A stretch of 64,000 bases of DNA from NCBI GenBank assembly GCA_009778915.1, contig WRFH01000005.1, positions 1 through 64,000 on the forward strand, read 5' to 3'. The position numbers and the translations under genes were made by a program. Position 1 is the first letter of the stretch; the number at the start of each line of letters is the position of its first letter. The notes under the pieces are model-generated. The model saw only the letters and a program-made list of their open reading frames with translations, was not told the origin of the DNA and made no database searches. Source of the stretch: Elusimicrobiota bacterium (lineage in GTDB: Bacteria; Elusimicrobiota; Elusimicrobia; Elusimicrobiales; Elusimicrobiaceae). Of the stretch, positions 1 through 63,024 are shown piece after piece.

Positions 1-3000
1 ACCTGCGGATGTCCATCGGACCATATAAAAGGTACAGACGGAGTAACGTGCGTGTGTCCTGCGGATAAACCGAATGACCTAAACGGCATATGCTCAGTGT
101 GTACGACGGCAACGCCGTTCCCGTCGAATAACGACGGTACGAAATGCTGCGCGAATCCGAATATGTACTGGTACGCGAGCGCCAACCCGCTTTTGGGGAT
201 AACAGCTGGCTGCAACGTATGTCAATCGGGCCAGTTCCCGGCGCAGAATAATTCTACGCAATGCTGCTCGGCGCAGAATATGTACTGGGACGGAACAAAA
301 TGCGTGACGTGCACCGCTAACGGTGTTGTTGGGCTGACTTCATTATTAAATACGAGCGTGTGGGATGCCGGCACTTTGACATGCAAATGCGCTACAGGCG
401 AGGTAACAGTTACAGGCGGCTGCTGCGCTTCGTCTAACCCTAATTTATCAAACGGCCATTGCTGTCCGCCGACGGCGCCGAACTGGGACACAGCGTTGAA
501 TGCGTGTTCGTCAGGGTGCACAGCGCCGAAAACACAATTTAACCCGACGACATTAAAATGCGAATGTCCTACGGGAGAATTTGAAGCTGCGAATAATAGC
601 GACCAGTGCTGTCCGAATAACGGAGATAACTGGAGCACTGCGACAAACGGTTGCGTAACGTGTCCGACGACAAAACCGTGGGACAACACGGCAGGGAAGT
701 GCCAGTGTCCGAGCGGCCAACAAGACGCGATAGGGGACGCCAGCGGCCAGAACTGCTGTCCTACGGATACACCTAACTGGAACACAACGACAAAGACATG
801 CCAGCAGTGTCCTACGGGGCAGTCACAGTCATTAAACGATACAACACAATGCTGCGCTTCTACAACGCCATACTGGAACGGCTCCGGGTGCGTGGCGTGC
901 AGCGGCATTGATCCGTCAGGGAATGTCGCGGGAACGCCGAGTGTATGGAATAACACTTCTAAACAGTGCGTGTGCTCAGGTACAAACGTTTTAGTAAACG
1001 GCAACGCGAACTGCTGCCCTTCAGGGTTGAGTTATTCGAACGGCCACTGCTGCCCGTCAACGACGCCGACGTGGGACACGGCGAGCGGCACATGTTCGGC
1101 TTCGTGCACGCCGCCTCAGACATGGGACGGGAACACCTGCGTATGTCCTTCAAGCACGCCGAACTGGTGGAATAACACCTGCAACTTCTGCGCCTCCAGC
1201 GCAAGACCTTATAAAGCTTTAAACAGCACAGAGTGTTGTATCGACGCGAATAATTACTTAGTAAGCGGCAGCGGAGCGAGCACTACTTGTTGCCCGTTAT
1301 CAACCGATAATTGGAGCAGCGCCACCGGCTGCGTTACCTGCTTTGCGCCTTTGGTCTGGAACGGGAGTAAATGCGCGTGCCCGTCGTCGGCTCCATATCC
1401 GGCCAGCAATAACGCCGCGCAATGCTGCTCTTCAACCAATATGTATTGGAACGGTTCCGCGTGCCAGGCTATTATATGTACGCCTAACAGCACAACATCA
1501 TGCGGAAACTGCGGTACGGAGACATGCAACAGCAGTGGTACCGCTTGGGGCTCTTGTACAGGCCAGGGAACATGCTCTCCGGGTTCAACGACTTCATCTT
1601 CATGCGGGTACTGCGGTACTCAGACAGCGACTTGTACCAGCAGCTGCCAGTGGGGTTCATATGGTTCTTGCACTGGGCAGGGCTCATGCTCTCCGGGTTC
1701 GACGACTTCGTCTTCATGCGGGTACTGCGGTACTCAGACAGCCACCTGCAGCAGCAGCTGCCAGTGGGGTTCATATGGTTCTTGTAACGGCCAGGGCTCA
1801 TGTTCTCCAGGCGCAACGCAAGCTTGCCCCTCTGGATATAATGGAAACCAGAACTGTACCAGCAGTTGCCAGTGGAGCACTTCAGGATGTACTGCCCAGG
1901 TGTGTACGCCTAACAGCACGTCGTCATGCGGAAACTGTGGTACTATGACATGTAACAGCACCGGTACCGCGTGGGGTTCTTGTAACGGGCAGGGCTCATG
2001 CTCTCCGGGTTCAACAACGTCGTCTTCATGCGGAAACTGCGGCACGCAGACAGCGACCTGTACCAGCAGCTGCACGTGGGGTGCATATGGTTCTTGTAAC
2101 GGCTCAGGGCCGTGCTACTCTGGCCAAACGAATTCACAGACTTGCGGTAGCCCTTATACGGGAGGCACGCAGAAACAGACTTGTACCTCTTCTTGCCAGT
2201 GGGGCGGTTGGGACTACAGCGGGTGTATATCGTGCTCTAACGTCAACCCGGGTTCTTTTAATACCAGCGGGACCGCAACCGGAGTTTCGATTCCTTCCGG
2301 ATGCTCTTGTAATAGCCCCGGTGTCAGTTTATCCGGTTATTGCTGCCCATCTGGTACGAGTTATATATCTGGCAGTACTTGCTATAAATGTCCGTCAGGC
2401 CAGTCATTGTATAACGGAATATGCTGTACAACCGGACAGAATTCGCCTGACGGTGTACACTGTTGTGCGTCCGGCTACAGCTATTATTGGAATAGTGCTT
2501 GCCAGCAGTGTCCCAACAGCACATGTCCTTATCCGTCAAGTAACGGCAGCTACTACTATTGTTGTCAGGCTTCAGGTTATACCAGCAGCCTGTCCAGTTC
2601 ATGTTCTACAACATGCACAGCGCCGTGTGCCTCAGGAAAGTATTCCTCTAACGGGACATGTTGTCCCTCAGGCGGGACTGTTGCCGCTACCGGCGGTAAT
2701 ACAAACTGGCAGTCCAACTGCTGTGCATCCAGCAGCGCCACGCTTTGGGTAAGCGGAACGAGTTGCATCCATTGCTCTACCAACTCTTCCTCTGATTCAT
2801 GTCAATGGTGGAACAACTTTACATGCATGAATACCTTTAGCAACGGTTCCTGCGTATGTCCGAGTGACCATCCTGTTGCGGTAGATAGTATGCATTGTTG
2901 CCCTAGCGGTTTGAAATGGGCTACTGGCAGCGGAACCCAACCGGGTTGCTGCCCGAATTCTACCGATACATATACAACATCCGGTACATGTCAAGCGGCG

Positions 3001-3207
3001 GCAGTAGCATGTTCCAATTCATCGGTCGGTGGAGGGTCAGGCACTACTGCAAGTGGACAGACTTTAAATGTTTCGTGTGTTAGCGCATATCCATATACAT
3101 CATACCCGAAATGTAGTTACTATGTTTATACGTGCAATAATGGTAATTGGTCTCTTACAACCAATAACTGTGCCACGGTAGATTTACAATGTTGTCAATA
3201 TCAGTAA
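1..3207 (+). CDS. Large cysteine-rich repeat surface/secreted protein, 5' end outside window
   Basis: The frame is open from the first base, so this is the C-terminal 1068 residues of a longer protein; the GTG at 52 is only the first possible start inside the window. The sequence is dominated by Cys, Ser, Thr, Gly, Asn and Trp, with a recurring module of the form CCP...W...C..C. From about 1475 to 2112 it changes to modules rich in SCGxCGTQT and CxWGxxGxC, partly exact 114-bp tandem repeats. I see no transmembrane segment or known enzyme motif in the visible part. The dense paired cysteines suggest an extracytoplasmic, disulfide-stabilised rod. Two small secreted proteins at 40545 and 44939 share the Cys-rich style. 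Function is not recognised. A hairpin follows the stop codon directly. Confidence 0.8.
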   Translation, partial: TCGCPSDHIKGTDGVTCVCPADKPNDLNGICSVCTTATPFPSNNDGTKCCANPNMYWYASANPLLGITAGCNVCQSGQFPAQNNSTQCCSAQNMYWDGTKCVTCTANGVVGLTSLLNTSVWDAGTLTCKCATGEVTVTGGCCASSNPNLSNGHCCPPTAPNWDTALNACSSGCTAPKTQFNPTTLKCECPTGEFEAANNSDQCCPNNGDNWSTATNGCVTCPTTKPWDNTAGKCQCPSGQQDAIGDASGQNCCPTDTPNWNTTTKTCQQCPTGQSQSLNDTTQCCASTTPYWNGSGCVACSGIDPSGNVAGTPSVWNNTSKQCVCSGTNVLVNGNANCCPSGLSYSNGHCCPSTTPTWDTASGTCSASCTPPQTWDGNTCVCPSSTPNWWNNTCNFCASSARPYKALNSTECCIDANNYLVSGSGASTTCCPLSTDNWSSATGCVTCFAPLVWNGSKCACPSSAPYPASNNAAQCCSSTNMYWNGSACQAIICTPNSTTSCGNCGTETCNSSGTAWGSCTGQGTCSPGSTTSSSCGYCGTQTATCTSSCQWGSYGSCTGQGSCSPGSTTSSSCGYCGTQTATCSSSCQWGSYGSCNGQGSCSPGATQACPSGYNGNQNCTSSCQWSTSGCTAQVCTPNSTSSCGNCGTMTCNSTGTAWGSCNGQGSCSPGSTTSSSCGNCGTQTATCTSSCTWGAYGSCNGSGPCYSGQTNSQTCGSPYTGGTQKQTCTSSCQWGGWDYSGCISCSNVNPGSFNTSGTATGVSIPSGCSCNSPGVSLSGYCCPSGTSYISGSTCYKCPSGQSLYNGICCTTGQNSPDGVHCCASGYSYYWNSACQQCPNSTCPYPSSNGSYYYCCQASGYTSSLSSSCSTTCTAPCASGKYSSNGTCCPSGGTVAATGGNTNWQSNCCASSSATLWVSGTSCIHCSTNSSSDSCQWWNNFTCMNTFSNGSCVCPSDHPVAVDSMHCCPSGLKWATGSGTQPGCCPNSTDTYTTSGTCQAAAVACSNSSVGGGSGTTASGQTLNVSCVSAYPYTSYPKCSYYVYTCNNGNWSLTTNNCATVDLQCCQYQ
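1573..2112 (+). repeat. 114-bp coding tandem repeats in the Cys-rich protein
   Basis: Two adjacent, nearly identical 114-bp units lie at 1573-1686 and 1687-1800, each encoding 38 residues beginning CSPGSTTSSSCG. A further diverged copy is at 1999-2112. A larger duplication is visible too: the CTPNST-to-GQG segment before the first unit (from about 1475) recurs from about 1900. The unit length is a multiple of three, so copy number can change without breaking the frame. Confidence 0.85.
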
Positions 3208-3332: not shown

Positions 3333-4673
3333 ATGTCTAACAAGAAATTGCTGCTGACAGTAATGTGCACGGCATTACTGTGCATTACTTATGGTAATGT
3401 TTTTGCCCAACGCACCTATACATCCACGGAGAGAAAGGCCCCTCTAAGAGCGGATTCTGCGGCCCCTATGCAGATTACGTATGCTGGGGTATTAAATCAA
3501 GGGACTTCAGATGACTACCAAGGAAATAGTTTGTTTTTTAGTACCGCTCAAAATCCTTTTAATCTTCTTCTGACTGTTCAGGTTAATACGCCTGTAAACG
3601 TAAAATATTCTCTCTATACTTTTAAAAAGACATTTTCACAGGACGGCAAGAGAGGATACTTGCAAGGGATAAATGAATGCAATTTGAATACCGCTATTAC
3701 AACCCAGGCGCAAATTGATGCTAACCTTGATAAAATTTATGAGTTCCCCGCTGTAACAGAAAATACAAGCACAAGTAAATTTATGGCGTGGGACGGGAAT
3801 ACGGACCCTCAGTTTACCGGCCAAAAATATGCCGTCAGGGATTGTATATATGTGGCGGCTTATAATGCGGACACCGGCGCACTTATAGATACGCAGGGTG
3901 TATTAAATGCCGCGCTAAATTATCAGACTATCGGTGTCCCCGCTGTAGCATATAATATAGACCAACAAAAAGACAATAGCGGAAACATTACTAAAGAAAC
4001 GCTTTCCGCAAAAGTTTATGTGGCGTATCCCGACAGTTGGCCTATTAAAAAGCTTACGGCGCTTATAATGACAGAAGACTGCGGTTTTGGCGCGACACCG
4101 ATTACCGTGGTTAACCAGGGCGCGGACGCAATAGCGGCTAATATAAACAGCAGATTACCCGGCGATGTTGTCGCTCATATCACGCTGACAAACCCTAATG
4201 TTGCCGCAAATAATCCGGATATAAAAACATTTGACTGGAAAGATATAAAAACAGAGGACGGAAAAGATTTTGTTCCAGACTTAGTAAAAAATCCGCAGGG
4301 ATACCTGATGGCTATAATAGTAGATATGGATGACATGACGTTTACCGGCGTTAAAAATGGTTCTATAGCCCCTGGTGTTCCTTCTGTTCCGCCCGTGCCG
4401 AAAAGCTACACCGGGATTCAATCTGTCGACGCGAATAAAGATGTTAAAATATATCCAAACGGTCTCGGCGGGTTTAACATAGACTGCCCAAACGGTATAT
4501 GTGTCAATAACAGCAAGTATCGTGTTATTAACACCGGCGGACAAGTGGTAGGCGCCGGCAATGTAAACGGCAATAAAATAGAAACCGGGGCCCCGCTTAC
4601 CAAAGGGCAGCTTTACATAATCCAAGTGGACACCAGCAACGGCACGGTAACGCAGAAAGTTATAAAAAATTAA
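3333..4673 (+). CDS. Exported protein with T9SS-like C-terminal sorting domain
   Basis: A 446-residue protein with a clear signal peptide (MSNKKLLL..., hydrophobic core, cleavage near VFAQ) and a strong ribosome site (GAAAGGAGAT). Residues 30-350 match the lipoprotein encoded at 4942, sharing motifs such as YSLYT(F/Y)KKTF, KYAVRDC and DDMTFTG. The last ~80 residues are extra and look like a type A sorting domain of type IX secretion: KIYPNG near the start, GGQVV in the middle, LTKGQLYIIQV and a final QKVIKN. The resemblance to that family is from memory and needs a profile search. The function of the main domain is unknown. A hairpin terminator follows. Confidence 0.8.
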   Translation: MSNKKLLLTVMCTALLCITYGNVFAQRTYTSTERKAPLRADSAAPMQITYAGVLNQGTSDDYQGNSLFFSTAQNPFNLLLTVQVNTPVNVKYSLYTFKKTFSQDGKRGYLQGINECNLNTAITTQAQIDANLDKIYEFPAVTENTSTSKFMAWDGNTDPQFTGQKYAVRDCIYVAAYNADTGALIDTQGVLNAALNYQTIGVPAVAYNIDQQKDNSGNITKETLSAKVYVAYPDSWPIKKLTALIMTEDCGFGATPITVVNQGADAIAANINSRLPGDVVAHITLTNPNVAANNPDIKTFDWKDIKTEDGKDFVPDLVKNPQGYLMAIIVDMDDMTFTGVKNGSIAPGVPSVPPVPKSYTGIQSVDANKDVKIYPNGLGGFNIDCPNGICVNNSKYRVINTGGQVVGAGNVNGNKIETGAPLTKGQLYIIQVDTSNGTVTQKVIKN

Positions 4674-4730: not shown

Positions 4731-4737
4731 ATTTAAT

Positions 4738-4870
4738 TTTCTCCCCTTATAAGGGGAGTACCGCCGAAGGCGGGGAGGGGTTTTTAATCGGGGTCCCGGC
4801 TGCTTTATATTACTGTGGCTCAAAACCCTTCCCCCGCTTTGCGGGTACTTCCCTTAAAAAGGGAAGAAAA
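4738..4870. repeat. Dispersed palindromic repeat A, copy 1
   Basis: About 133 bp with two ends that are inverted copies of each other. Each end is itself built of two small hairpins (CTCCCCTTATAAGGGGAG and CCGCCGAAGGCGG on the left). The middle contains GCTTTATATTACTG, also seen in copy 2. Other copies are at 6030, 10678 and 45797. It has no coding capacity and looks like a MITE or REP-type element. Confidence 0.8.
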
Positions 4871-4941
4871 TTGATTTAGATGTCTTCTTTCCGCAATGGG
4901 CAGGGGAATAATTTTTATATAATTAGTTAGAGGATAAAATT

Positions 4942-6009
4942 ATGCCGAATAAAAAATTATTACAAGCCGCGCTTACTCTTGCCCTGTTATTGACTGGCTG
5001 CCATAACGCTTCGTCCGAAAAAACCCAACCCGCGCCGCCTCTGCAAATTACAAAAGCGTATATAATCCCGGTCACGGAAACTTTTGATAATTATCTCGGC
5101 AGGCATTTTTTATCTTTCGTAAAAATTCCGCACTACGACGGGCTGGCGCTTAAAGACGCTTACAGCATTAATCTGCAGATTGAAAATACTCCGCCGGCTG
5201 ACGCCAAATATTCGCTGTACACCTATAAAAAAACTTTCGCGCAGGGCGGCAAACGCAATTACATGCAGGGCATAAGAGAGTGTGACTCCATTACGCCGCT
5301 GGCGACGCAGGAAGATATTGATAAAAATTTAGATAAAATCTATGAAACGACATTGGTAACAGAAGGTTCGTTCCAGTCCTACGGCGCGCCCGCTCCGACA
5401 AAATATTTGAAATTTGAATGGGACGGCTCCACGAACCCTCAATTTACCGGCGGCCAAAAATATGCCGTCAGGGATTGTCTTGTCGCGGCAGTACACGACG
5501 AGGGCGGTAAACTTATATCAATGAAAGACCTCACCACCGCTGCAGAAGGCTACGCCGTCACCGCCGGCACAAGTTATACCGCCGGGGACAAAACAATTTC
5601 CGCTAAAATTTACACGGCATATGACAGACCGCCTAAAAAGATATGGGCATTTTTGATGGTTGAAAACTGCGGCATAGGCGCATTAACGTACGACGTGGTA
5701 AACCAGGGCGGCGCGGCCATAGCGGCGGACATAAACAGAAGGCTGCCCGGCGACGTGGCGGCTTATACTGAGCTTACCAACCCGTCTTTTGACACTAAGA
5801 ACAGTCTTATAAAAATTTACGAATGGAAAGATATTAAAGGTGTGGACGGTAAGGATTTCACGCCCGCGCCGGATAAACCGCAATACCGCATGGCTCTTAT
5901 TTTAGAAACCGACGATATGACGTTTACCGGCATCAAAGACGGTTATATCTACGACGGAGCTTACCAGGTTGTCCCGTCGCCGAAAAAAGTAAAAACGGCT
6001 AAAAAATAA
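4942..6009 (+). CDS. Lipoprotein paralogue of the preceding exported protein
   Basis: A 355-residue protein with a type II signal peptide: MPNKKLLQAALTLALL followed by lipobox LTGC, placing the acylated Cys at residue 20. The body is homologous along its length to residues ~80-350 of the protein at 3333-4673 (KTFAQGGKRNYMQGI, KYAVRDC, NQGG, DDMTFTGIKDG). It stops about where the sorting-like domain of the neighbour begins and has a short Lys-rich tail instead. The pair therefore differ in how they are attached to the cell. Upstream is repeat A copy 1 and downstream repeat A copy 2. No known enzymatic motif was recognised; the family role is unknown. Confidence 0.8.
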   Translation: MPNKKLLQAALTLALLLTGCHNASSEKTQPAPPLQITKAYIIPVTETFDNYLGRHFLSFVKIPHYDGLALKDAYSINLQIENTPPADAKYSLYTYKKTFAQGGKRNYMQGIRECDSITPLATQEDIDKNLDKIYETTLVTEGSFQSYGAPAPTKYLKFEWDGSTNPQFTGGQKYAVRDCLVAAVHDEGGKLISMKDLTTAAEGYAVTAGTSYTAGDKTISAKIYTAYDRPPKKIWAFLMVENCGIGALTYDVVNQGGAAIAADINRRLPGDVAAYTELTNPSFDTKNSLIKIYEWKDIKGVDGKDFTPAPDKPQYRMALILETDDMTFTGIKDGYIYDGAYQVVPSPKKVKTAKK

Positions 6010-6029
6010 AATTTCCGATGGCAATGCTA

Positions 6030-6163
6030 TTTTCTCCCCTTAAAAGGGGAGTACCGCCGAAGGCGGGGAGGGGTTTTGAACCGGGGGACAAGCTGCTTTA
6101 TATTACTGAGGATTAAAACCCATCCCCCGCTTCGCGGGTACTTCCCTTATAAAGGGAAGAAAA
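6030..6163. repeat. Dispersed palindromic repeat A, copy 2
   Basis: Very similar to copy 1 over its whole length: left end CTCCCCTTAAAAGGGGAG then CCGCCGAAGGCGG, middle with GCTTTATATTACTG, right end CCCCCGCTTCGCGGG then CTTCCCTTATAAAGGGAAG. It lies in the 3' flank of the lipoprotein gene. Confidence 0.8.
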
Positions 6164-6184
6164 TTATTTTGCCAAATAAATAAA

Positions 6185-6528: not shown

Positions 6529-6533
6529 ACATT

Positions 6534-6746
6534 TTTCCCTCGCCCCTCCGGGGGAGAGGGTGAGGGGGAAGTTACACAAAACTGCGTCGTGTTGTTATAA
6601 AACTAAGTTTGAATTTTCACCTTATAGGTCCCGGAAAGGCGATGTCTTGAATAGATGGTACGGCAACGGCGCATATTTGTGTTTCAAAACCCTCACCTGT
6701 GTCCTCTCCCTTTCAGGTAGAGAAAAAAAATTGGAGGACGGAGTAT
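6534..6746. repeat. Dispersed repeat B, copy 1 (inverted)
   Basis: About 213 bp related in reverse orientation to the elements at 28684 and 62797. Its left end carries CGCCCCTCCGGGGGAGAGGG then GTGAGGGGG. The middle has CGGAAAGGCGATGTCTTGAA, and the right end has CCCTCACCTGTGTCCTCTCC then GGAGGACGGAG. The right palindrome is partly decayed. It has no credible coding content. Confidence 0.75.
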
Positions 6747-6795
6747 TGATAATCAAAATGTTTTTTTAAAAACGCTCGGTTTCTTTGCGCGGCAT

Positions 6796-10677: not shown

Positions 10678-10802
10678 TTTTTTCTCCCCTTTATAAGGGG
10701 AGTACTGGCGAAGCCGGGGAGGGGTTTTGAGCGCGATTAAAACCCTTCGCCCTTCGGGCACTTCCCTTAAAAAGGGAAGAAAAGATTTGAGGACGGAGTC
10801 TT
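10678..10802. repeat. Dispersed repeat A, copy 3, with a repeat-B-like end, between ftsA and ftsZ
   Basis: A shorter copy of repeat A fills 10678-10784: CTCCCCTTTATAAGGGGAG, then a short middle, then CTTCCCTTAAAAAGGGAAG. It is followed by TTGAGGACGGAGTCTT (10787-10802), the same end sequence, in reverse complement, as repeat B copies 2 and 3. The A and B ends are thus joined here. The GGAG of that end lies where the ftsZ ribosome binding site should be. Confidence 0.75.
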
Positions 10803-28639: not shown

Positions 28640-28683
28640 AAAAACCACTCTACTATATTTATTGTTAATTGTGCAAGATTATT

Positions 28684-28907
28684 AAGACTCCGTCCTCAAA
28701 TTTTTTTCCTCTCCCCACCGGGGGAGAGGACACAGGTGAGGGGGTAGTTAAACAACATGCGCCGTAAGTCTTAAAATCTGTTCAAGGCCCCGCATGCCGG
28801 GGCCGATAAGGTGAAAAACCTAAGTTGATGAACAACAATATATTGTGTACATGATGTGTACACACCCCCTCACCCTATCCCTCTCCCCCGGAGGGGCGAG
28901 GGGAAAG
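28684..28907. repeat. Dispersed repeat B, copy 2
   Basis: About 224 bp starting AAGACTCCGTCCTC. The left end has CCTCTCCCCACCGGGGGAGAGG and GGTGAGGGGG, the right end CCCCCTCACC and CCTCTCCCCCGGAGGGG: imperfect terminal inverted repeats, each holding a palindrome. The middle has CGCCGTAAGTCTT, CCGGGGCCGATAAGG and GTGTACATGATGTGTACAC, all shared with copy 3. The flanking bases to the pilin start (28908-29095) show nothing further I can name. Confidence 0.85.
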
Positions 28908-29095
28908 ATATCTTGTTTTATCGTCCGCGCGGCCTTAATTTTCGGTATTTTTATCAAGTTAGCATACCTAACTAAAAAATGCGTCGCCGTCTAAGCTCTG
29001 TATAGCCTGACTATTTACTTTACATTAGCAGATTCTTTGAATAAAATATTAATGAAATTAGATGTTTAATCTTATTGGTTTATCAGGACAATAAT

Positions 29096-29662
29096 ATGAA
29101 ATATAGATATCAGGCGCGGACGGGTTTTACCCTTATTGAATTATTAATAGTAGTGCTTATAATAGGAATACTGGCTGCCGTCGCTTTGCCAATGTACAAC
29201 AAAAGCGTTGAAAAATCCCGCGCCGCGGAGGGAATGACTATAGTGTCTTCTCTAGCCAAAGCCGGGAAAATGTATATGATGGAAACCGGAAATAATCCGT
29301 GGCAGGGAAATGCAAAATGGTCCGATCTTGATGTCCAGTATACTGTTGCCATACCTGATGCGTGGGCCGGAGGTAATCAAATCATAGGCAGCGGTAACTG
29401 GTACTGCGGCTTTGGCACCGCGTACGCGCGTTGCGCCAGGCAGTCTGGAAACTTTAGTTACGCATTTTATTATTATTTTGACGGGCCCAATAATAATCTT
29501 ATACAGTGCTCTGGCTTTACAAACGATGGCAAAGCAATATGCAATGCCTTGGGTTTACCGCTTTCAAATTGCTCGTGTCAGTGTGAGGCTTTTTCTCCGG
29601 TGGTAACTGCGAATCCGAATGCGCCTATTGTGGGTTGCGCTTGTTCGTGCCTCACGACATAG
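29096..29662 (+). CDS. Type IV pilin-like prepilin
   Basis: A 188-residue prepilin. A short basic leader [10 protein letters not shown] is followed by the processing site G/FTLIEL, with Glu at +5, and the conserved helix [27 protein letters not shown]. The C-terminal part is specific to this protein and carries many Cys near the end (NCSCQC, GCACSC). I chose ATG 29096, preceded by AGGACA, over an earlier in-frame start at 29075 because the leader is then of normal length. It is a single gene with its own terminator, not part of a pilus assembly operon. It could be a major or minor pilin or a type II pseudopilin. Confidence 0.9.
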
Positions 29663-31040: not shown

Positions 31041-31565
31041 TTAGTTAAGCGCGAGGCATTGGGTGGCATTCCAGCCGCAGTTTACCGTCGGCGGATTAGT
31101 TTGTTTTGCGCCGAGGGACTGGCATAAAGCCAGACCTTCGGTATTGGTATTACTTGCGACACAGAATATTTTCCTATCTCTGTCTTTCTGATAACTTATA
31201 TAAACAGTTGACACTGTACCCGAAGAATACGCGGTAACATAATTTGCATACGCCCCCGAACCCATTAAAATAAACCAGTCTTTTGATACGGTTATTTTGG
31301 CGTAACTGTCATTATATCCCGGATAGCGTGATTCCTCAGCCGGAACCTGTATGTCCAAATCACTGAAATTTACAGGATAATCGCCGGTCTCCAAAAAATA
31401 TCTTTCCCTGCTGTCGGCGATATTTCGTACAAGGATAAGCGCCTGCATGGCGCGGGATTTTTTGACGGCTTTATTATACTGCGGCACCGCTATGGCGGCC
31501 AATATGCCTATTATCAGGACGACGATTAATAATTCTATTAACGTAAATCCTTTTTCCTTAAACAT
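31041..31565 (-). CDS. Type IV pilin-like prepilin
   Basis: A 174-residue prepilin: leader MFKEKG, cleavage before FTLIEL, then [30 protein letters not shown]. The C-terminal domain is unlike those of the other two pilins in the window except for a late pair of Cys ([10 protein letters not shown]). It is single, with its own terminator. No Shine-Dalgarno sequence is seen; a TAAAAT hexamer ends five bases before the ATG, so the mRNA may be leaderless. Same assembly possibilities as for the pilin at 29096. Confidence 0.9.
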
Positions 31566-38104: not shown

Positions 38105-38590
38105 TTATTTGAGCATAGGGTTAATTGTATTGCATATAGTAATATCTGCGCCGCCTACACATGTTCTAGGATTATCTGATGAGAAACCGCCTTTATCTAA
38201 CGAGTAATTAATCTGATAAGCGCATAGGTAAATACCATGCACAGGATCAAAAGGTTGAGGAGGAGGCACTCTACAAGCGAAAATTAGGCATTTATCACCC
38301 GCGCATGTGCCAGTCATATAATAAAAATTTTTGCTTGCTGACACGTCTATATCCAAACTGTCTGAACCGCCTGGGGCACCGATGTTAATGCTGAGGCCGT
38401 CGTAAGAACCGTTAAGCAGATAGTATCTCTGCGCGGCGTCTGTTATAGCTTTTAAGTTAAGCAAAGCTTCGGCTGCACGTGATTTTTCTACCGTTTTGGT
38501 ATACTGCGGCAATGCGATTGCGGCCAGTATGCCGATTATTAGAACTACTACGAGTAATTCTATTAATGTGAAACCTTTACTGTTTTCCAT
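38105..38590 (-). CDS. Type IV pilin-like prepilin
   Basis: A 161-residue prepilin: leader MENSKG, then [36 protein letters not shown]. The globular part has four late Cys (CAGDKCLIFAC, TCVGGADITIC). SD AGGAGGACG precedes the ATG. Like the other two pilins it is a single gene between unrelated operons with its own terminator. The N-terminal ~40 residues are nearly the same in all three, the rest is not. Confidence 0.92.
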   Translation of the reverse strand: MENSKGFTLIELLVVVLIIGILAAIALPQYTKTVEKSRAAEALLNLKAITDAAQRYYLLNGSYDGLSINIGAPGGSDSLDIDVSASKNFYYMTGTCAGDKCLIFACRVPPPQPFDPVHGIYLCAYQINYSLDKGGFSSDNPRTCVGGADITICNTINPMLK

Positions 38591-40544: not shown

Positions 40545-41222
40545 TTACTGCTGTACGCATGTATACGTTATTCCGCACGTGAAGTTAATTCCGTTACCGG
40601 ACTGATTGTTTTGTACATCAGTTCTTCCGTTCCAGCTGGTCGCGCAGCAGCCGCTTGCGTAGGTAATCCCGTCCGCCAGCAGTACCGGGTACGCGCTTTG
40701 GTTTTCGCAATAACCGGTGGTGTTGAGGTTGCAGCTTGAAGTAGCGATAGAAGTCGGACACGGATTACTTGGCGAGGCATTGGGATAAAGATTTAAGCCG
40801 TTGTTCGCAACGCCGCCGTTCTTGCAGTTTACCATAGCGTAACTCATCTGCCATACATAGCTGGGCGTCGGCGTTATGCCGCCTCCGCCGACAGGGGCAG
40901 ATCCGCAGCATTTGCCGCTCGGGATATCTTCCTGATAGTCAGCCAGTTTGCTCTGTGTTCCTAAACACAGACACGGAGTAAGACAAGTTTTTCTGGCTTT
41001 TACCCATGTTTTAGTGATATCTGAGCAGCATCTGGAATCGTTATCATTGCCGTAGCCGCCCCAGTTATTTGCGCAGCAGTCGGAAACGATATTGACGCCT
41101 GAACCGGGGGTTGCTTGATTACACCTGCACTCGGCATAACTGCCGTAAGGGTAAGTTATGCCGGTTCCGGCGGCGGCAAACAGAACGGCCGCGAACACAA
41201 AAATTTTTATTATTTTTTTCAC
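40545..41222 (-). CDS. Small cysteine-rich secreted protein
   Basis: A 225-residue exported protein starting with GTG behind a strong AGGAGG. Signal peptide MKKIIKIFVFAAVLFAAAG, then a Cys-rich mature part with about 20 Cys. It shares with the protein at 44939 an N-terminal block (ECRCNQATPGSGVN / HCRCNQASPGLGSN) and a middle block (TPCLCLGTQ(S/T)K.ADYQED.P.G.CC), while the C-terminal thirds differ. The style recalls the large protein at 1-3207 (CCATSWNG, CCANNWGG). Disulfide-rich surface or extracellular role is likely; function unknown. An ~80-bp upstream region is nearly identical to that of the gene at 44939. Confidence 0.8.
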   Translation of the reverse strand: MKKIIKIFVFAAVLFAAAGTGITYPYGSYAECRCNQATPGSGVNIVSDCCANNWGGYGNDNDSRCCSDITKTWVKARKTCLTPCLCLGTQSKLADYQEDIPSGKCCGSAPVGGGGITPTPSYVWQMSYAMVNCKNGGVANNGLNLYPNASPSNPCPTSIATSSCNLNTTGYCENQSAYPVLLADGITYASGCCATSWNGRTDVQNNQSGNGINFTCGITYTCVQQ

Positions 41223-44938: not shown

Positions 44939-45646
44939 TTATGGCTGAGGGGTACAAATTAATCTAGCCAGCATTTGCCCGTTGCTGTTGCTTGTACAAT
45001 TTGGTTGAGTCCCGTTCCACGCCGCTGTACTGCCAGGCGGACAGCAAAGGCAGTTGCAAGACTGAAAGCCCCATACCCCGCCCGCGGATATGCATTGGTT
45101 ATAGGCCAGCTGGCTGGGGCAGGTACATGCGCCCCATGTACAATCAGAGCCGCACGTTTGAAACATATAACCTTGTAAATAACTGCCGTTGCCGCCTAAG
45201 TCCACGCCGGTGTAAGTCGTACCGCCGCACCATTGCGTAGCGCCGGCCGTACATGCCCCGGGACAACTCCCGCCGAGGGTGCCGCCGCCGACAGGTTTTG
45301 ACAGACAACATACCCCGCCCGGGGCGTCTTCCTGATAATCAGCCTGTTTGGTCTGTGTTCCCAGACACAGGCACGGCGTTTTACAGTAAGAAGTTGACCA
45401 ATTCGCGCTTCCTCCTGCCCACACTTTATTCACGCCGGCTACAAGGGAGCAACATATGTCTGGGTTACTATTTTGATACGAATTATTGCTACTATCGGAG
45501 CAGCAGGTGGAGGGTTGATTACTGCCAAGCCCTGGGGAGGCTTGGTTACACCGGCAATGCTCATAAGACGTGGCGGCAAATGTTACCATTGTTCCCGCAG
45601 CCAGAAACAAAAGCGACAGAGTTAAATTTATTGTTTTCTTTTTCAC
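44939..45646 (-). CDS. Small cysteine-rich secreted protein
   Basis: A 235-residue exported protein with a GTG start behind AGGAGA and a signal peptide (MKKKTINLTLSLLFLAAGTMVTFAA). It has about 24 Cys. The N-terminal (YEHCRCNQASPGLG) and middle (CKTPCLCLGTQTKQADYQED) blocks match the protein at 40545. The C-terminal third has CPGACTAGATQWCGG and CGSDCTWGACTCP, similar in style to the SCQWGxxGSC modules of the large protein at 1-3207. So it links the small and large Cys-rich proteins. Function unknown. Confidence 0.8.
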   Translation of the reverse strand: MKKKTINLTLSLLFLAAGTMVTFAATSYEHCRCNQASPGLGSNQPSTCCSDSSNNSYQNSNPDICCSLVAGVNKVWAGGSANWSTSYCKTPCLCLGTQTKQADYQEDAPGGVCCLSKPVGGGTLGGSCPGACTAGATQWCGGTTYTGVDLGGNGSYLQGYMFQTCGSDCTWGACTCPSQLAYNQCISAGGVWGFQSCNCLCCPPGSTAAWNGTQPNCTSNSNGQMLARLICTPQP

Positions 45647-45796: not shown

Positions 45797-45934
45797 ATTT
45801 TCTCCCCTTTGTAAGGGGAGTACCGCCGCAGGCGGGGAGGGGTTTTGAACCGGGGGACAGGTTTATTTATATCGGGGTTGGTTCAAAACCCTTCCCCCGC
45901 TTCGCGGGTACTTCCCTTATAAAGGGAAGAAAAT
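45797..45934. repeat. Dispersed palindromic repeat A, copy 4
   Basis: Left end CTCCCCTTTGTAAGGGGAG then CCGCCGCAGGCGG, middle GAACCGGGGGACAGG as in copy 2, right end CCCCCGCTTCGCGGG and CTTCCCTTATAAAGGGAAG. It lies between the Cys-rich gene promoter and the trigger factor terminator. Confidence 0.8.
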
Positions 45935-45967
45935 TATATTGTCAACTAATTATCCCACGTTGGAATA

Positions 45968-62796: not shown

Positions 62797-63024
62797 AAGA
62801 CTCCGTCCTCCTATTTTGTCCCTCTCCCCTCCGGGGGAGAGGGCACGGGTGAGGGGGACGTTACACAATATGCGCCGTAAGTCTGTAAATCTATTCAAGA
62901 CATCGCCTTTCCGGGGCCGATAAGGGGAAAACCTAAGTTTATGAACGACACATCAATATTGTTGTGTACATAATGTGTACACACCCCCTCACCCCGGCCC
63001 TCTCCCCAGGAGGGGAGAGGGAGA
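62797..63024. repeat. Dispersed repeat B, copy 3
   Basis: Same orientation as copy 2: AAGACTCCGTCCTC, palindrome CCTCTCCCCTCCGGGGGAGAGG, GGTGAGGGGG, CGCCGTAAGTCTG, CCGGGGCCGATAAGG, GTGTACATAATGTGTACAC, and right end CCCCCTCACC with CTCCCCAGGAGGGGAGAGG. It fills the space between the Crp/Fnr promoter and the rplS terminator. Confidence 0.85.

What the first reader, a model, noticed from the sequence alone, without database searches (positions are those of the whole stretch)
4420..4673. Type IX secretion-like sorting domain in a probable non-Bacteroidota genome
Seen: the final ~80 residues contain KIYPNG, GGQVV, LTKGQLYIIQV and a terminal QKVIKN, matching from memory the order of motifs in type A sorting domains. 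If the host is Elusimicrobiota this implies a T9SS there, or capture of the domain by transfer.
Basis: partly seen in the sequence, partly recalled or inferred. Interest (0 to 1): 0.6.

Follow-up and report, generated by a model that had tools for sequence, protein, structure and literature searches.

The report
Type 9-like export signal in Elusimicrobium

Summary
The last ~86 residues of the 446-aa ORF at 3333-4673 match the type A sorting domain (TIGR04183: 27.2 bits six-frame; 22.7 against a cut-off of 23 in hmmscan). AlphaFold2 predicts seven strands, and the best PDB fold match is the NucA substrate tail bound in the SprA translocon. The tail is modular: two other unrelated proteins in this genome carry it, and a tandem paralogue of the host protein lacks it and has a lipobox instead. 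The phylum is Elusimicrobiota. A profile of Elusimicrobiota SprA-like proteins finds a ~1,750-1,900-aa SprA homologue in 166 of 199 genomes, including all 52 other family members and both congeners, but not this 66%-complete assembly. PorV-family proteins occur in 177; about half of 40 sampled tail genes have one directly downstream. The PorU peptidase family was found in one genome; GldM in none, but that negative had no positive control. So 'T9SS in Elusimicrobiota' is largely supported, as a variant without a recognisable sortase or motor. No paper in the held library reports it. Nothing here shows secretion experimentally.

The parts
3333..4673 (+). ORF of the tailed protein, 446 aa, orphan passenger
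   Evidence: no homologue in 89 other genomes of the family, only the tandem paralogue in this genome
3333..3407 (+). probable Sec/SPI signal peptide MSNKKLLLTVMCTALLCITYGNVFA, then Q
   Evidence: read from the sequence and a crude script; no dedicated predictor was available
3408..4403 (+). passenger domain (about residues 26-357) and Pro-rich linker
   Evidence: 46% identity to the paralogue over residues 31-357; no Pfam or NCBIfam match
4413..4670 (+). type A-like C-terminal sorting domain, seven-stranded Ig-like fold predicted
   Evidence: TIGR04183, A2 profile and PDB, AF2 and Foldseek
4942..6009 (+). tandem paralogue of the passenger without the tail (355 aa)
4990..5001 (+). lipobox LTGC at the end of the paralogue's signal peptide (lipid anchor in place of the tail)
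   Evidence: read from the sequence

Best explanation
The protein is a cargo of a type 9-like secretion pathway native to Elusimicrobiota. Inferred steps: the signal peptide takes it to the periplasm by Sec; the folded Ig-like C-terminal domain is recognised at a SprA-type outer-membrane translocon and collected by a PorV-family barrel protein; the passenger is then released or held at the cell surface through that domain and its PorV-family partner. The tandem paralogue is lipid-anchored instead. Shown here: the domain, its modularity, its fold match to a translocon-bound tail, a phylum-wide SprA homologue, PorV-family genes and their arrangement next to tail genes. Not shown: SprA in this assembly, a motor, a sortase, and secretion itself.
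For: TIGR04183 match; tails shared by three unrelated passengers in this genome and cleanly absent from the paralogue; seven-strand model with NucA, RgpB, PorZ and mirolase tails among the best fold matches; tail profile finds T9SS cargo tails first in the PDB; SprA homologue in 166/199 genomes, 52/52 other family members, with PDB hits only to SprA; tails and SprA co-occur (118 both, 6 tail only, 48 SprA only, 27 neither; PorV and SprA 165/12/1/21; related genomes, so the p-values are only indicative); PorV-family gene directly downstream of 19 of 40 sampled tail genes, all PorV hits on the same strand.
Against: Own assembly has no SprA, and its contig ends hold none of the neighbour genes of the E. 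minutum sprA. No C25 sortase in 198 of 199 genomes, no GldM. The tail is at the edge of the curated cut-off. A whole genus of the family keeps SprA but shows no such tails. The three tails of this genome are not next to a PorV-family gene.
Confidence: 0.7

Rival explanations
1. The tail is a generic FlgD/fibronectin-like Ig domain at the C terminus, structural or adhesive, with no sorting role.
For: Borderline profile score; FlgD_ig matches 14 of 30 aligned tails; other Ig-like and FN3 domains appear in the fold list at similar E-values.
Against: FlgD_ig does not match this tail itself, while Por_Secre_tail does; the tail is strictly C-terminal, ends in the basic QKVIKN-type stretch shared with unrelated proteins and is swapped against a lipid anchor in the paralogue; the best fold match is a translocon-bound tail.
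Confidence: 0.17
2. The tail was captured from Bacteroidota by transfer (or the contig is contamination) and has no machine in this host.
For: No SprA in the assembly; tails are sparse in the family (10 of 90 genomes); a gut habitat shared with Bacteroidota is likely.
Against: SprA in both congeners and all other family members, tree grouping by family; tails are common in other families of the phylum; the tails lie on two contigs of a genome with 0.02% estimated contamination and on orphan passengers.
Confidence: 0.06
3. The Elusimicrobiota SprA homologue serves another outer-membrane task, for instance one linked to lipopolysaccharide export, and the tails are handled by something else.
For: lptF/lptG lie beside sprA in the family and were detected in 25-26 of 42 long named loci; sprA is kept in a genus with no detectable tails; no recognised motor or sortase.
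Against: In several other families the same neighbourhood holds an M6-protease-like protein with a sorting tail plus a PorV-family gene; PorV-family genes and SprA co-occur; adjacency to lptFG alone does not assign a function.
Confidence: 0.07

Closest known systems
T9SS type A C-terminal domain (TIGR04183 / PF18962), e.g. NucA, RgpB, PorZ tails
   Same: C-terminal, about 75-85 residues, KIYPN start, GxxV, GxYII, basic end; seven predicted strands; modular on Sec-exported proteins.
   Different: Weak score, P of the second YPNP position missing, host outside Bacteroidota; cleavage or lipopolysaccharide attachment by a PorU-type sortase is unlikely here.
SprA/Sov translocon (TIGR04189; PDB 6h3i)
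   Same: Profile match E 1e-26 to 1e-50 on single ORFs; the Elusimicrobiota profile finds only SprA in the PDB.
   Different: About 1,750-1,900 aa instead of about 2,300-2,400; below the equivalog cut-off of 200 bits; sits beside lptF/lptG and a comF-like gene.
PorV shuttle and the PorP/SprF-type shuttles of type B cargo
   Same: PorV/PorQ family barrel (NF033709); gene directly downstream of the cargo gene, as SprF-like genes are for type B cargo (PMC12618676).
   Different: In F. johnsoniae all type A tails share one PorV; here about half of the sampled type A-like tails have their own PorV-family neighbour. The two examined proteins stay far below the PorV equivalog cut-off.

Membership tests
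T9SS type A sorting domain (TIGR04183) | Score over the curated cut-off (23 bits) | tested here: inconclusive
   27.2 bits six-frame, 22.7 bits whole protein
T9SS type A sorting domain (TIGR04183) | Extreme C-terminal position on a protein with a Sec signal peptide | tested here: met
   Profile 1-72 of 72 ends at the last residue; signal peptide read by eye and crude script
T9SS type A sorting domain (TIGR04183) | Seven-stranded Ig-like beta-sandwich | tested here: met
   AF2 model with seven strands, best fold match 8glk_D; a prediction, not a solved structure
T9SS type A sorting domain (TIGR04183) | Modular: same tail on unrelated passengers | tested here: met
   Three passengers in this genome, tail absent from the paralogue
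T9SS type A sorting domain (TIGR04183) | Directs export across the outer membrane | not testable with these tools
   needs an experiment
Type IX secretion system | SprA/Sov translocon | tested here: inconclusive
   Homologue in 166/199 phylum genomes and both congeners, absent from this 66%-complete assembly
Type IX secretion system | PorV-family shuttle | tested here: met
   Two family-level matches in this genome, 83.7 and 52.8 bits, both under the cut-off of 90; 177/199 genomes
Type IX secretion system | PorU sortase (peptidase C25) | tested here: not met
   Own genome none; 1 of 199 phylum genomes
Type IX secretion system | GldL/GldM motor | tested here: inconclusive
   GldM: no match over cut-off in 199 genomes, three weak ones of 14-15 bits; no positive control genome; GldL not searched
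Type IX secretion system | GldK/GldN ring, SprE, Plug, PorD | not tested

The most novel reading that the evidence does not exclude
Elusimicrobiota carry a vertically inherited type 9-like system without the C25 sortase and without a GldM-type motor, in which type A-like cargo is handled by dedicated PorV-family partners encoded directly downstream: a simpler or older form of the Bacteroidota machine, powered and anchored in another way.
Probability: 0.4. Interest if true: 0.8.

Novelty: new variant of a known kind. Interest (0 to 1): 0.62.

Why it matters
[quoted passage not shown] A SprA homologue in nearly every good Elusimicrobiota genome would put the origin or an old transfer of this pathway on another branch, offers an isolate (E. 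minutum) in which to ask what a minimal translocon needs, and would explain how gut elusimicrobia display surface proteins. The absence of a recognisable PorU and GldM makes an open question testable: what powers and finishes export here?

Tried and rejected
Own-genome searches with TIGR04189 and C25 alone looked negative; taken alone they would have misled, since the curated SprA_N model catches only 35 phylum genomes while a profile of Elusimicrobiota sequences finds 166. A scan of genome contigs with the whole protein found no relative; no phage match. The contig ends hold no sprA-neighbourhood gene, so the absence could not be pinned to a contig break. Tails in the SprA-less genomes G074 and G179 look Bacteroidota-like to my eye and may be contamination of those MAGs; not tested. 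Literature searches for T9SS or SprA with Elusimicrobi* gave no report in the held library; the E. minutum genome paper is not held. The three weak GldM matches (14-15 bits, two with stop codons inside) were treated as chance.

Full report
Observation. TIGR04183 covers the last 74 residues over its full length: 27.2 bits in the six-frame genome search, 22.7 bits (cut-off 23) with hmmscan. Pfam's model is weaker. A profile made only from tails of other Elusimicrobiota genomes ranks this ORF first among 394 open frames of the window, and none of 1,000 shuffles reaches its tail score (14.4 against at most 12.2 bits). The score is modest, so I looked for independent support.

Modularity. Two further proteins of the genome, encoded by neighbouring genes on contig C1, end with related tails (TGI...KIY...QKVIKK and TGI...VY...KVINQ) on passengers that look unrelated. 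The gene right after the finding (4942-6009) is a paralogue of the passenger, 46% identical over residues 31-357, and stops where the tail begins; it starts with a lipoprotein-type signal ending LTGC. So the same passenger exists with a sorting tail and with a lipid anchor. The passenger is otherwise an orphan: no homologue in 89 other genomes of the family.

Fold. AlphaFold2 on the tail with 29 relatives gives seven strands, pLDDT 82.7, pTM 0.71, the strand number reported for type A tails (PMC12618676). The top PDB fold match is the NucA tail in the substrate-bound translocon (8glk_D), then the RgpB tail, with PorZ fourth and the mirolase tail at rank 11; E-values are about 1e-3 to 2e-2 and other Ig-like domains are mixed in, so this is support, not proof. 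By sequence, a profile of six Elusimicrobiaceae tails finds T9SS cargo tails first in the PDB at E about 1e-6. Of its 13 chains with E<0.1, eight are tails of established T9SS cargo (NucA, 8glj, RemZ, RgpB, mirolase); the other five match at their C-terminal end and were not checked.

Host and machine. The tool places the genome in a genus with a single-contig genome of 1,643,562 bp, the size of E. minutum Pei191 as I remember it, and the phylum's members carry Elusimicrobia titles. The curated SprA_N model rings in 35 of 199 phylum genomes. A profile of twelve full-length ORFs from these (A1) rings in 166 of 199, in 134 of 142 good genomes, usually as a single ORF of about 1,750-1,900 aa. Individual ORFs match TIGR04189 surface_SprA at E 1e-26 to 1e-50, below its equivalog cut-off; against the PDB the profile finds only SprA. 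A tree of 20 proteins largely groups by family, which fits vertical descent; one node that would unite all of the window's family is unsupported. All 52 other members of the window's family in the sample have it, including both congeners; the window's own assembly, 66% complete, does not, and its contig ends carry none of the neighbour genes of the E. minutum sprA.

PorV family. NF033709 matches in 177 of 199 genomes. This genome has two, one lying about 10 bp after a 1,526-aa protein with a partial tail match. In the top-150 lists of tails and of PorV-family hits, 14 of 23 same-contig combinations are a tail followed on the same strand by a PorV-family gene 90-412 bp downstream. In 40 sampled tail genes I count 19 with a PorV-family ORF within 600 bp downstream on the same strand: 15 by the script's strict rule among 38 with enough sequence, one more at a contig end, and three whose first possible start overlaps the tail slightly. 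The sample was taken from the best-scoring tails, one per genome, so the rate may not hold for weaker ones. In F. johnsoniae type A tails share one PorV, and it is type B cargo that has a cognate shuttle gene downstream (PMC12618676). Near sprA, some families also carry an M6-protease-like protein with a tail plus a PorV-family gene; lptF/lptG and a comF-like gene are the usual neighbours.

What is missing. The C25 peptidase family of PorU was found in one genome of 199. GldM gave nothing convincing, but I had no genome with a known motor as a control, so that negative is weak. GldK, GldL, GldN, SprE and Plug were not searched. The largest genus of the family (g3) keeps SprA and PorV-family genes but shows no such tails, so its cargo is unknown.

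Mechanism. Most likely: Sec export, recognition of the folded tail at SprA, collection by a PorV-family barrel, then display or release. Only the parts list is shown; each transport step is inferred from Bacteroidota work (PMC10994853). Without a C25 sortase the tail may stay on and hold the protein through its PorV-family partner; that is a guess.

Novelty. Papers in the held library call T9SS Bacteroidota-specific (PMC7463736, PMC10994853) or rarely found outside (PMC5837995); none reports it for Elusimicrobiota. Subscription papers were not covered, automatic annotation of such tails as 'T9SS type A' is likely to exist, and a prior report is possible. I file it as a variant: it works like a type 9 system, with one tested component (PorU) not met and SprA not yet found in this very genome.

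Noticed in passing
window 4736-4877, 6029-6169, 45797-45935, half copies at 10680-10788: Dispersed imperfect-palindrome intergenic repeat of about 140 bp (82-90% identity), directly downstream of both the finding and its paralogue, with 15 or more further copies in other stretches of the genome; MITE- or REP-like.
   Followed up: partly
window 6533-6755, 28677-28906, 62797-62931: A second dispersed intergenic repeat family of about 145-240 bp, also copied in other contigs.
   Followed up: no
L064:6483-9698 (G000:C1): Two neighbouring genes for tailed proteins (625 and 409 aa); the first has a repeated module VSINPxNGIY..., and the congener G184 has a similar 616-aa-frame protein with a tail.
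   Followed up: partly
L063:5745-11297 (G000:C1): A 1,526-aa protein with a FlgD-type Ig domain and a partial tail match, followed about 10 bp later by a PorV-family gene.
   Followed up: partly
window 3333, 47705, 52371; L063:5745; L064:8469: Gln at +1 of the likely signal-peptidase site in many secreted proteins of this genome, as in the 'Q-rule' described for Bacteroidetes (PMC5837995); crude script only.
   Followed up: partly
window 1-3207: Very Cys-rich ORF of at least 1,068 aa (CPSG...CCP repeats), open at the window's start, no Pfam match; two smaller Cys-rich paralogue-like ORFs at 40545-41222 and 44939-45646.
   Followed up: no
window 29075-29662, 31041-31565, 38105-38590: Type IV pilin-like genes ([19 protein letters not shown]) scattered singly between housekeeping genes.
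   Followed up: no
L032-L045, L056-L062, L065: sprA beside lptF/lptG and a comF-like phosphoribosyltransferase gene in many Elusimicrobiota.
   Followed up: partly
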